Both the position numbers and the translations under genes were made by a program. DNA of 64,000 nucleotides, from the NCBI RefSeq assembly GCF_004217495.1, contig NZ_SHLC01000001.1, positions 2,852,001 through 2,916,000 on the forward strand, in the 5' to 3' direction. The notes beneath the pieces are model-generated. The model made no database searches and was not told the DNA's origin. It saw only the letters and a program-made list of their open reading frames with translations. The stretch is from Microterricola gilva (GTDB taxonomy: Bacteria > Actinomycetota > Actinomycetes > Actinomycetales > Microbacteriaceae). Position 1 is the stretch's first letter. The number at the start of each line of letters is the position of its first letter. This document shows positions 788 through 16,976 of the stretch, one piece after another.

Positions 788-2203
788 ATGGCGCGCAGAC
801 GGTTGAGGATGGTGGCGATGCTGGTGACGGCCGTCGCCGGTGTGGCGACGCTGTCTGGATGCGGGTTCCTCTTTCCGCCCGATCCGCCCTCCTCTGTCTC
901 GGGCGCCCTCGATGAGGCTGTTGAGGCGATCCGCGATCTAGACGGAGTCGGTTCCGCAATGTGGACGGCCTCGGCGGACAGGAAAGACGGTGGCCCGCTC
1001 TCGAAACCGGATGCGTGGTCGGCGCACATCACCGTCGCCGTTTCCCCCGGCCTGCCGGATCTCGAAGCGCTCGCCGCCGATGTCGCGTACGAGGTGGCAT
1101 CCGCACGCGGCACCGTGAAGACCACAGGCACGATGCGGCTGCGCGCCGATCGGAACGGCCCGGCCACTGTGCTCGAGTTCGCCGGCAACGACTCCCCCGA
1201 AACTCCCGCAGACATCGCGGCCGCCGCGGAGCTGCTGCGGTCGGTCTCCGGCGCGACCTCGGTCTTCGTCGCACTGGGCTCGCAGCCGGCGAGCGTGAGC
1301 ACTTCCTCGTCCGCAGGCTGGGCCGAGACGGCTGCCGAACTGCGTCGGCTTCCGGGCTTCGGGAGCGGTGCTCTTGCGTCCGTCGCCATTGACGGCCGCG
1401 ACGCATTCTCCGGCCGGGTCAGCCGGATCTTGATCGATGCGCTCACCCCGAGCGCGGCCCTCATCCCGCTGCTCAGCGAGTTGGCAGGGCGGGCTGACGT
1501 CATCAGCTTCCACGAAGGACCGACTCGCAGCACCGCGGAGGCGGGGAGCGTTCGCCCGATTTTCCGCATCGAGGTGCGCAGCCGGGAGGCCGTTGCGCGC
1601 TTCAGTGACACCCTCACTGGGATCGATGGCGGGCTCCTTGTCGACGGCCGCCCGCGGCCAGCCTTCACCGTTTACGCGAGCGCGGGCGAGACAACGACCG
1701 AACACAGCGGCTTTCTCGGCTTGCCGCTCGGCGCGGACGAGCCGGACGATCTCGCCAAGCCCAGTATCGACGACCTCACGCCGGAGGAACTCGCCGCGCG
1801 ATCCGACGGTCCGCTGATCGTTCTGTCCCCTGACGCGGCTGCCGAGCGACTCGAAGCGGACCGCCTGGCCACGATGGCGCTGTTGACGGACGCCGGCGAC
1901 CTCGCCGGAGTCCCCGGGACCGTGACGGTGTCGACCGCAGGCTGCGAGGTCGGCGTCGGAGAACAGCAATCGGGTTCGGTCGTGATCCCCGTCTTCGAAA
2001 TCGCGGACAGCGCGGATGAGGCCCTCGACGCGATCACGGCGTCGTGGCTCACCGTGGGATACTCAGCCTCCGACCGCGCCATGGGGACCGATTTCTACAC
2101 CTCAGCCGACGCCTTACAGGGAGGAGTGGCGACAGCCTCCATCCGCGGAGGAGTCGAAGGGATCACGATCCGCACTACCTCGACGTGTGTCGTCTCACGC
2201 TAG
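788..2203 (+). CDS. putative secreted lipoprotein of unknown function
   Basis: A 471-residue protein. The N-terminus has Arg residues, a hydrophobic stretch and a lipobox ending VATLSGC, so it should be lipid-anchored at the outer face of the membrane at about Cys23. The rest is a soluble, Asp- and Ala-rich domain with no motif I recognise; it may consist of repeated alpha/beta modules, since similar segments with EAL and DLxG patterns recur. The ATG at 788 was chosen because it begins the signal peptide; the reading frame stays open upstream to position 59 but that part is antisense to the ArsR gene. It is divergent from the regulator and ends in a strong hairpin shared with ackA. Function unknown. 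Confidence 0.75.
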   Translation: MARRRLRMVAMLVTAVAGVATLSGCGFLFPPDPPSSVSGALDEAVEAIRDLDGVGSAMWTASADRKDGGPLSKPDAWSAHITVAVSPGLPDLEALAADVAYEVASARGTVKTTGTMRLRADRNGPATVLEFAGNDSPETPADIAAAAELLRSVSGATSVFVALGSQPASVSTSSSAGWAETAAELRRLPGFGSGALASVAIDGRDAFSGRVSRILIDALTPSAALIPLLSELAGRADVISFHEGPTRSTAEAGSVRPIFRIEVRSREAVARFSDTLTGIDGGLLVDGRPRPAFTVYASAGETTTEHSGFLGLPLGADEPDDLAKPSIDDLTPEELAARSDGPLIVLSPDAAAERLEADRLATMALLTDAGDLAGVPGTVTVSTAGCEVGVGEQQSGSVVIPVFEIADSADEALDAITASWLTVGYSASDRAMGTDFYTSADALQGGVATASIRGGVEGITIRTTSTCVVSR

Positions 2204-6273: not shown

Positions 6274-6318
6274 CAGCACAGAACCGAGCAGTACAGAACC
6301 GAGCAGCACAGAACAGCG
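6274..6318. repeat. three tandem 15-bp direct repeats in the E1-like gene leader
   Basis: Three consecutive units: CAGCACAGAACCGAG, CAGTACAGAACCGAG and CAGCACAGAACAGCG. They end 20 bases before the GTG start codon of the E1-like gene and just before its ribosome-binding site. They could be regulator half-sites placed at regular 15-bp steps, a translational leader element, or slippage products. No protein-coding role is apparent. Confidence 0.75.
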
Positions 6319-13389: not shown

Positions 13390-14136
13390 ATGCCAGCGGC
13401 CGAACGCACCATTCGCACAAGGAGGCGCACCATCAGCGCTATCGACAACGCCTTCCACGGCCTGCGGCAGATGATCGCCTCCGGCGAGTTGCAGCCCGGT
13501 CAGCAGTTCCCCTCCGAGGCGCAGCTCTGCGACCGCCTCCAGGTGTCCCGTGGCTCGCTGCGTGAGGCCGTGCGCATGCTGGGCGCGCTCGGCGTGATCG
13601 AGTCTCGGCACGGCTCAGGCACCTACGTCTCCGCGCTGGAACCCGCGAACATCATCGGCGCGCTCGGACTCACCGTCGGGCTGATGCCCCTCGAGGGACT
13701 CATCGACATGTTCGAGTCGAGGCGCGTGCTGGAATCGCACGCGACCGCGCAGGCCGCCGCCAACATGACGGATGCCGCTGCGGACGAACTCGGCGCGATC
13801 CTCGATGCGCTCGAGCAGACCGACGACCAGGAGCGGGCATCCGATCTGGACTCGCAGTTTCACGAGGGCGTCACCGCGCTCGCCCAGAACGCGACGATCG
13901 CCGTGCTCCTGCGGGTGTTCCGATCCCGCTCGCGCTCGTACCAGCTCTTCGACCTGCCGGCCGGGCCGGAGATCAAGGCCCAGAGCGACCACTCGCATCG
14001 CGAGATTCTCGCTGCGCTGATAGCGCGCGACCCGGCGAACGCCGCGACAGCGGCCGCGACTCACGTGCTGCAGACCGAGCGCTGGGCACGTGAGCACAGG
14101 CCGGCCGCGAAGCCGGGCCCGATCACCGCCGACTGA
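13390..14136 (+). CDS. GntR-family (FadR-type) transcriptional regulator
   Basis: A protein of up to 248 residues. The wHTH domain (PGQQFPSEAQLCDRLQVSRG and SLREAVRMLGALGVIE) is GntR type and the helical C-terminal FCD domain (ESRRVLESHATAQAA, DSQFHEGV, SDHSHREILAAL) makes it a FadR subfamily member. It probably represses the divergent PLP-enzyme/ABC operon. The start is uncertain: ATG at 13390 has no Shine-Dalgarno and would be nearly leaderless, whereas a strong AAGGAGG lies six bases before an in-frame ATC at 13432, just before the conserved AIDNAFHGLR segment. A stem of tandem repeats begins 16 bases after its stop codon. Confidence 0.9.
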   Translation: MPAAERTIRTRRRTISAIDNAFHGLRQMIASGELQPGQQFPSEAQLCDRLQVSRGSLREAVRMLGALGVIESRHGSGTYVSALEPANIIGALGLTVGLMPLEGLIDMFESRRVLESHATAQAAANMTDAAADELGAILDALEQTDDQERASDLDSQFHEGVTALAQNATIAVLLRVFRSRSRSYQLFDLPAGPEIKAQSDHSHREILAALIARDPANAATAAATHVLQTERWAREHRPAAKPGPITAD

Positions 14137-14152
14137 GCTGCTGGGCCTTCGA

Positions 14153-14288
14153 CTTAACGAAAAGGACCCCTCGCGCACCTCGGGCGTTGACACTGCCCCG
14201 GTTACCCTTGCGCGGGTCGAGTTAACGAAAAGGACCCCTCGCGCACCTCGGGCGTTGACACAGCCCCGGTTACCCTTGCACGGGTCGG
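14153..14288 (-). repeat. two tandem 68-bp units, truncated copies of the SRP RNA 3' end
   Basis: Units at 14153-14220 and 14221-14288 are nearly identical to each other. Read on the minus strand each carries GCAAGGGTAACCGGG and then GGTGCGCGAGGGGTCC followed by TTTTCGTTAA, which are the 3' half and U tract of the adjacent SRP RNA gene. The central segment differs (TGTCAACGCCC instead of the intact sequence), and the GGAA tetraloop and 5' half are absent. They are therefore tandem partial duplications directly downstream of the functional gene. Confidence 0.85.
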
Positions 14289-14299
14289 CTTAACGAAAA

Positions 14300-14389
14300 G
14301 GACCCCTCGCGCACCCGCCAGAGCCCGGTTACCCTTGCTACGTTTCCGTCCTGGGGGAGTTGGCCTGGATGACGCCACGCGAGGAGTCG
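14300..14389 (-). ncRNA. ffs: signal recognition particle RNA, small bacterial type (4.5S)
   Basis: About 90 nt on the minus strand. The conserved Ffh-binding region is clear: CCCCCAGGAC, the GGAA tetraloop, then ACGTAGCAAGGGT with the AGCA internal-loop element. The 5' end GACTCCTCGCG pairs with the 3' CGCGAGGGGTC (one U-G pair), closing the long hairpin. A TTTTC tract follows the 3' stem and can terminate transcription. Placement next to tRNA-Ser supports the call. It guides inner-membrane and secreted proteins to the translocon together with Ffh and FtsY. End positions are approximate. Confidence 0.9.
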
Positions 14390-14395
14390 TTGAAT

Positions 14396-14401
14396 AGTTT
14401 A
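14396..14401 (-). promoter_or_regulatory. -10 element of the SRP RNA promoter
   Basis: TAAACT on the minus strand, seven bases before the predicted 5' end of the SRP RNA, in a locally AT-rich stretch. A convincing -35 was not found, which is common for actinobacterial promoters. Confidence 0.5.
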
Positions 14402-14508
14402 CCGTGTCGCGGGAGTGCTCGCGTCCACCTCGCTCAGGGGGTGGTGGCACGAAGCACCCTTTCGATCAGATAAGATTCTCTGAGTTGCTTTCTTCCGAGA
14501 GAGTTTCT

Positions 14509-14596
14509 GGAGAATTCGCCTAGTGGCCTATGGCGCACGCTTGGAAAGCGTGTTGGGTGCAAGCCCTCGGGGGTTCGAATCCCCCATTCTCCGCCA
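14509..14596 (+). tRNA. tRNA-Ser (anticodon GGA)
   Basis: 88 nt including an encoded CCA. The acceptor stem GGAGAAT pairs with ATTCTCC, the anticodon arm CACGC-TTGGAAA-GCGTG gives anticodon GGA, the long variable arm is that of a class II tRNA (serine), and GGGGGTTCGAATCCCCC is the T arm. Reads UCC and UCU codons. A GAAA-loop terminator follows at once. Confidence 0.97.
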
Positions 14597-16317: not shown

Positions 16318-16976
16318 AGCTCCGCCGCCGTCGAGATACCGACGCGCGGAGCCTGCTCGCTCCCCGACGGCAACGGCCGGAAGCCCAGCCGCGCGTAGAA
16401 CGCCGCCGCTCCGCTGTTGAGCGGCGCGTAGCCGAGGTGCACACCGGACACCCCGAGCGCGCGCAGCTGTGCGAGCAGCGTCGCGATCAGCGTGCGGCCG
16501 AGGCCGAGACCCTGCGTCTCCGGCAGCAGGTTGATGTGCAGGTGGGCGGGGAACGCCGCGAGTTCGTCGGCCGGCGGCGCCTCCGGGTGCAGGCCGGCAG
16601 CGATGACCGTGCGCTCTGCGGCGCTGACGGATGCCGGCTCGCCGGCCGGCGCGTAGCGCTCAGCGAACCGCGGCAGCCAGCGCTCCCCGTACCAGCGCAC
16701 GAAGTCACGCGTGTCGGCCGCGGCGATGATGTAGCCGAGCACCCGCTCTGGCGCGGACTCCCCCTGCGCTGACTCCCCCTGGCCGGCATCCGGGCGGTCG
16801 ACGACGAGCGTGGCGAGCTCAGGCGCATACTCCAGATACGGGCCGGCGTAGACGTCGGGCATCAGATCGTCGCTGCTGTACTGGCCAGTGGCGTCGGCCC
16901 CGGCATCCGCCGTGCGCACGCAGATCTCGTAGACGGCGGCTCGGTCGGCTGGACGGTACGGGCGCAGTTCGAGCAT
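16314..16976 (-). CDS. GNAT-family N-acetyltransferase
   Basis: A 220-residue protein whose C-terminal half has the acetyl-CoA binding signature QGLGLGRTLIATLLAQL (motif A) and the later AAAFYARLGFRPL (motif B). The N-terminal RPYRPADRAAVYEICVRT is the usual first strand and helix. Acceptor unknown. It overlaps the kinase gene by four bases at their convergent ends. The separation from the upstream phosphatase gene is about 23 bases on the same strand. Confidence 0.88.
   Translation of the reverse strand: MLELRPYRPADRAAVYEICVRTADAGADATGQYSSDDLMPDVYAGPYLEYAPELATLVVDRPDAGQGESAQGESAPERVLGYIIAAADTRDFVRWYGERWLPRFAERYAPAGEPASVSAAERTVIAAGLHPEAPPADELAAFPAHLHINLLPETQGLGLGRTLIATLLAQLRALGVSGVHLGYAPLNSGAAAFYARLGFRPLPSGSEQAPRVGISTAAEL

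What the first reader, a model, noticed from the sequence alone, without database searches (positions are those of the whole stretch)
14153..14389. SRP RNA gene followed by two tandem partial copies of its own 3' end
The minus-strand ffs gene (14300-14389) is followed by two nearly identical 68-bp units that each repeat its 3' half, terminal stem sequence and U tract but lack the 5' half and GGAA tetraloop. Transcription passing the first terminator would run through two more copies of it. This may be a terminator array, a decoy RNA, or a recent duplication; I know of no description of such a structure.
Basis: partly seen in the sequence, partly recalled or inferred. Interest (0 to 1): 0.7.

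Follow-up and report, generated by a model that had tools for sequence, protein, structure and literature searches.

The report
Repeated tail copies behind SRP RNA
Behind the gene for the signal recognition particle RNA of this bacterium lie two shortened copies of the gene's tail, and related genera carry up to six such copies that change together with the gene: an old, easily lost repeat whose job, if it has one, is unknown.

Summary
One ffs gene (RF00169, 61.2 bits, 14295-14391 minus) is followed by two 68-bp units, 64/68 identical, without the 5' half or GGAA loop.

The units are not plain copies of the ffs 3' end. Between two ffs-like blocks they carry an altered, longer middle (GGCTGYGY plus a variable loop). 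It recurs in Leifsonia, Cryobacterium, Mycetocola, Homoserinimonas, Curtobacterium and Agromyces; of 16 such stretches, 15 lie directly behind ffs and one ends at a contig edge. Up to six units stand in a row.

Unit 3' arms follow their own genome's ffs (15-nt arm 96% against 89%; next 12 nt 84% against 52%): concerted change. Remnants and patchy absence are common.

The middle is conserved between genera (79%; spacer 29%), but I found no supported RNA structure. A terminator array is not supported; transcription was not testable.

Best reading: an old ffs-derived repeat, seen only in Microbacteriaceae, multiplied, homogenised and deleted by recombination. A function of the conserved middle stays open. 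Eight open-access literature searches listed no description.

The parts
14295..14391 (-). ffs, small bacterial SRP RNA gene
   Evidence: RF00169, 61.2 bits, full model 1-97; only match in the genome
14301..14315 (-). 3' arm of the ffs terminal helix (GGTGCGCGAGGGGTC), followed by CTTTT at 14296-14300
   Evidence: read; used as the arm
14224..14291 (-). unit 1, 68 bp partial copy of the ffs 3' half with altered middle
14156..14223 (-). unit 2, 64/68 identical to unit 1
14258..14265 (-). conserved core GGCTGTGT of unit 1, not present in ffs
   Evidence: 79% mean identity between genera
14190..14197 (-). core GGCAGTGT of unit 2
14233..14247 (-). repeated 3' arm in unit 1, identical to that of ffs
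   Evidence: offset 53, 0 mismatches
14165..14179 (-). repeated 3' arm in unit 2, identical to that of ffs
   Evidence: offset 121, 0 mismatches
13390..14136 (+). convergent FCD/GntR regulator gene; its stop lies 19 bp beyond unit 2
   Evidence: Pfam FCD 74.7 bits and GntR 66.2 bits

Best explanation
The units are an old repeat derived from the 3' half of ffs, found so far only in Microbacteriaceae. One ancestral truncated copy, with an altered and lengthened middle, was inherited by several genera. Because each unit ends like ffs, misaligned recombination or slippage between these ends multiplies units, deletes them, and swaps ends between unit and gene. This keeps unit ends matched to the local ffs and explains the patchy presence. 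Shown by sequence: homology, tandem arrangement, concerted change, decay, and confinement to this family within what was searched. Inferred: the recombination mechanism and a single origin. Not shown: transcription or any function. I think the array is close to neutral for the cell, with an unexplained constraint on the GGCTGYGY core.
For: The same altered middle in six genera. Unit arms match their own ffs at 96% against 89% for other species, and the 12 nt beyond the helix at 84% against 52%, which pairing alone would not cause. End swap: Leaf264 has one end at ffs and another at its unit, while in L. flava ffs itself carries the second end. Within arrays units are nearly alike, up to six in G485. 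Remnants: core without end (L183, L218), end without core (L201, L197), truncated (L137). In the window's genus the Ffh tree fits a loss in G001+G003. No excess of RNA structure.
Against: The core differs less than the spacer between relatives (10/88 against 65/175, p 6e-6) though not clearly less than the loop (24/118, p 0.09), so something may select for it; my loose core expression inflates this. The Ffh tree needs at least 6 gains or losses, so a single old origin implies many losses, or lateral transfer. Recombination was not observed directly.
Confidence: 0.6

Rival explanations
1. Fail-safe or strand-exchange ends: RNA polymerase that passes the ffs end transcribes units, whose 3' arm can pair with the ffs 5' arm and displace the native one, offering further stop or processing sites or limiting mature SRP RNA.
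For: Each unit repeats the 3' arm and a pyrimidine-rich tract. In 26 of 28 loci the predicted read-through RNA pairs the 5' arm with the unit arm (mean 0.92) rather than its own (0.12). E. coli SRP RNA is known to refold from a 5' hairpin during transcription (passages of PMC6954663).
Against: The same preference arises with shuffled unit middles (0.91 against 0.14). A column-aligned consensus of ffs plus unit keeps the native helix. T tracts of unit-bearing ffs genes are not significantly poorer. No transcript data.
Confidence: 0.2
2. A sequence-recognised element: the core ACCGGGGCTGYGY is bound by a protein, or acts as a pause or processing signal, in RNA or DNA.
For: Core 79% identical between genera, spacer 29%; a Curtobacterium subgroup lost GGGTA but keeps CCGGGGCTGTG; no secondary structure explains it.
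Against: Many relatives lack units; remnants decay freely; no binding partner known; the core is short and the expression used to find it is favourable.
Confidence: 0.12
3. Scars of integrating elements: repeats of a gene's 3' end of the kind that integrases leave at RNA genes.
For: Partial 3' copies behind tRNA and tmRNA genes are a classic sign of such insertions (recalled). Another family shows a longer repeat of the ffs end at a contig edge (L361).
Against: Units stand head to tail, arm to arm mostly 57-69 bp apart, with no room for an element; they share a middle that ffs lacks; the three viral contigs matches to the unit pattern have no ffs nearby. Integrases further away were not sought.
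Confidence: 0.05

Closest known systems
Bacterial small SRP RNA (ffs, RF00169)
   Same: Both outer blocks of the unit are the 3' half of ffs, including the 3' arm of the terminal helix.
   Different: No 5' half, no GGAA loop, no AGCA; a longer, altered middle; no RF00169 match even at E up to 1.
Tandem transcription terminators behind stable RNA genes (recalled)
   Same: Repeated 3' arm and pyrimidine tract behind a stable RNA gene.
   Different: No own 5' arm and no internal hairpin better than chance.
Partial 3' gene copies left by integrases at tRNA/tmRNA genes (recalled)
   Same: Repeat of the 3' end of an RNA gene just downstream of it.
   Different: Short head-to-tail units with a shared altered middle and no element seen.
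Tandem repeats under concerted evolution (general, recalled)
   Same: Copy-number change and homogenisation within arrays.
   Different: Here the homogenising partner is an RNA gene that every bacterium is thought to need.

Membership tests
Small SRP RNA (RF00169) | Matches the covariance model, with 5' and 3' halves and GGAA-type apical loop | tested here: not met
   Units give no match at E up to 1 in 14050-14450; only ffs does
Intrinsic terminator | Own GC-rich hairpin directly before a T tract | tested here: not met
   52 units: arm pairing and energy equal to shuffles; consensus hairpin has no double-sided change and is reached by 29% of column shuffles. For it: 97.3% of cells pair, against at most 62.7% when slid, a structure taken from the same alignment
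Intrinsic terminator | Stops transcription in the cell | not testable with these tools
   No transcript data at hand
Tandem repeat under concerted evolution | Units more alike within a genome than between species | tested here: met
   Spacer identity 0.95 within arrays, 0.33-0.48 within genera, 0.29 between genera; arms and following 12 nt match own ffs better
Tandem repeat under concerted evolution | Copy number varies between close relatives | tested here: met
   0 to 2 within the window's genus; 0 to 6 in Curtobacterium
Integrase scar | Mobile element or integrase between or beside copies | tested here: inconclusive
   None between adjacent copies; wider flanks not searched for integrases

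The most novel reading that the evidence does not exclude
The units are a functional accessory element of the SRP RNA gene in Microbacteriaceae: a conserved sequence core plus a spare 3' arm that acts on read-through ffs RNA by exchanging with the native 3' arm, thus setting the 3' end or the amount of SRP RNA.
Probability: 0.25. Interest if true: 0.75.

Novelty: new variant of a known kind. Interest (0 to 1): 0.5.

Why it matters
SRP RNA is usually seen as a single gene with nothing attached. Here a fragment of it appears to have persisted across genera, varying in copy number and tied by recombination to the parent gene, which in one species seems to have taken over the fragment's end. It is a compact natural case of concerted evolution at a basic RNA gene, and it poses a testable question: what happens to SRP RNA when polymerase reads into further copies of its own 3' strand.

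Tried and rejected
Self-standing hairpin in the unit: single folds, arm-pairing shuffles, pair counts and column-shuffled alifold gave no support. The terminator scan found nothing, not even ffs.

Core as partner of the ffs 5' half: the 28 concatenated sequences looked striking (5' arm to unit 0.85, own 0.18), but shuffled middles behave the same (mean energy z +0.37, i.e. real ones slightly less stable), and separately aligned parts keep the native helix. Rejected as evidence for selection.

Compensation for a weak ffs T tract: no significant difference. Unit as a known RNA family: none. Unit as a dispersed repeat: the ffs locus alone at E 0.001 in this genome.

Rows dropped or special: 14 loci had no ffs by my expression. 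Of the 38 loci with an arm copy, 30 had the core by my expression; L163, L167, L197, L200, L201, L225, L254, L289 did not (L167 and L225 have near matches; L163, L200, L254, L289 are 3-mismatch hits, probably chance). L223 was left out; L114 out, and L114 counts as one unit and is misread's first arm, because its first arm lacks a base. In one search, 14 of 69 loci had the arm set by a fixed offset because my expression failed.

Full report
What is there. On the minus strand the window carries one SRP RNA gene, ffs, at 14295-14391 (RF00169, 61.2 bits). A tRNA-Ser (GGA) lies on the plus strand at 14509-14596. Behind ffs follow two 68-bp units, 14224-14291 and 14156-14223, equal at 64 of 68 bases. 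A convergent FCD/GntR regulator gene, 13390-14136 plus, ends 19 bp beyond them. The genome is one contig of 3.67 Mb, and a search with the 261-base region found only this place at E 0.001.

The units are not simple copies. Each has a first block (GCAAGGGTAACCGGG), an altered middle and a last block (GGTGCGCGAGGGGTCCTTTTCGTTAA). The two blocks are ffs sequence; the middle is not. Where ffs has CTCTGGCGG, unit 1 has GCTGTGTCAACGCCCGA. They lack the 5' half and GGAA loop and do not match RF00169 at E up to 1.

The genus. Of 5 genomes, G000 has two units, G002 and G004 one each, G001 and G003 none. An Ffh tree of 30 genomes joins G000 with G002, and G004 with G001+G003 (starred branches), so one loss in the last pair is the simplest reading.

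The family and beyond. Model R1 of 12 units (sequence only) gave more than one match in 10 of 398 family genomes: 9 (5 of 85 genera) with a unit of 37.9 bits or more, and G343 with a truncated one; ffs itself scored at most 35.8. The pattern GGTAACCGGGRCN{12,26}GGTGCGYG hit 55 stretches in the GTDB genome collection. Of these, 15 have ffs within 600 nt upstream, one (L107) is a contig edge of a Cryobacterium MAG already among the 15, and 39 show no ffs by my expression. The 16 are titled Leifsonia, Cryobacterium, Curtobacterium, Agromyces, Homoserinimonas and Mycetocola. With model R2 of 27 units, 6 of 57 genomes of the genus of G343 (Cryobacterium) have strong units (51 bits or more) and G343 a remnant; 15 of 66 of the genus of G326 (Curtobacterium) have a match besides ffs, one of them (G485, L162) six units in a row; in the Leifsonia genus of G105, 2 of 3. 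At order level 4 of 396 genomes matched at E 1e-6, and only the window's own had units; R2 may miss units with other ends. That Agromyces belongs to this family is recalled; the other genera share family f1 with the window through G handles.

A model-free scan. For each ffs locus I looked 450 nt downstream for its own 15-nt 3' arm. Of 187 distinct loci, deliberately rich in the genera above, 38 had one at 3 mismatches or fewer and 34 at 2 or fewer. The opposite strand of the same stretches gave 2 and 0; the stretch upstream gave 2 and 0, from fewer positions. This added units that the models had not counted (L179, L223, L225) and remnants: core without end (L183, L218), end without core (L201, L197), truncated (L137). 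From other families of the order I scanned 69 loci out of 147 genomes with ffs: three had 3-mismatch hits and L361 a longer direct repeat at a contig edge; the L361 repeat, read, does not carry the unit middle. In 14 of the 69 the arm was set by a fixed offset.

Concerted change. Unit arms agree with the ffs arm of the same genome at 96%, with that of other species at 89%; the 12 nt beyond, outside the helix, at 84% and 52%. Leifsonia Leaf264 (L087) has one end at ffs and another at its unit; in L. flava (L070) ffs itself carries the second end, with its run of four or more T gone. In G457 (L158) ffs and unit share CCAGG; in G485 both have AGCC; in G419 (L129) the same position changed to different bases, which copying does not explain. 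Later units decay in C. luteum (L101) and Homoserinimonas (L106).

Is the middle kept? Between genera, mean identity of first units is spacer 29%, first block 88%, core of 8 nt 79%, loop 40%, arm 84% (296 pairs). In 11 pairs that I chose, 10 of them within genera, differences were spacer 65/175, first block 11/110, core 10/88, loop 24/118, arm 2/165; spacer against core p 6e-6, loop against core p 0.09. The core was found with a loose expression, which favours identity. A Curtobacterium subgroup lost GGGTA yet keeps CCGGGGCTGTG. I take this as moderate evidence of constraint.

Does it fold? 52 units are no more stable than shuffles (mean z -0.11), and their arm is no better paired. The consensus hairpin GGGRC:GUCYY with GYGY:GCGY pairs in 97.3% of cells but with one-sided changes only in 27 units, and column shuffles reach its energy in 29% of cases. 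With ffs in front, the 5' arm is predicted to prefer the unit arm (0.92 against 0.12, 28 loci), equally so with shuffled middles (0.91 against 0.14). A read-through RNA might therefore change its fold, but there is no sign that the middle was shaped for it. T tracts: 5.1 against 5.4 T in 8 (p 0.10); TTTT in 16 of 34 against 90 of 153 (p 0.25).

Reading. An old truncated copy of ffs with a changed middle is carried by several Microbacteriaceae genera and is multiplied, homogenised and lost through recombination between its end and the end of ffs. The Ffh tree forces at least 6 gains or losses, so many losses, or some transfer, must be assumed. Function is not shown. I rate the near-neutral repeat highest, a fail-safe or strand-exchange role next, a sequence-recognised element third.

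Literature. Eight searches of open-access PMC full text listed no paper that describes partial ffs copies behind ffs. Several lists were cut (for example 12 of 60 shown), and I saw titles and abstract starts only, plus passages of PMC12212151, PMC6954663 and PMC8632094. Subscription papers are not held, so absence in print is not proved.

Noticed in passing
L361 (G556:C9:1-318), another family of the order: The end of ffs plus about 60 bp behind it is repeated about 130 nt further on, at a contig edge; it lacks the unit middle. An independent duplication at the same kind of place.
   Followed up: partly
L165 (G502, Curtobacterium), downstream of ffs: Four copies of a roughly 21-bp repeat of the post-terminator type (CTTCTTCTCCGTTCCCGGGAC) stand behind ffs, without core or arm.
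   Followed up: no
L070 / G105, Leifsonia flava ffs end: The ffs gene lacks a T run behind its terminal helix (GTCACCTCTC), apparently after taking over the unit's end; how it terminates is unclear.
   Followed up: partly
L162 (G485, Curtobacterium): Six units of 62 bp in tandem, the longest array seen.
   Followed up: partly
L078 and L107 (Cryobacterium MAG CAN_BIN06): Two contigs both break inside the unit array, so its true copy number is unknown and the array hampers assembly.
   Followed up: no
window 930-974, 6274-6314 and 16751-16781: Three other short tandem repeats (period 23 or 15, 2 to 2.7 copies) reported by TRF.
   Followed up: no
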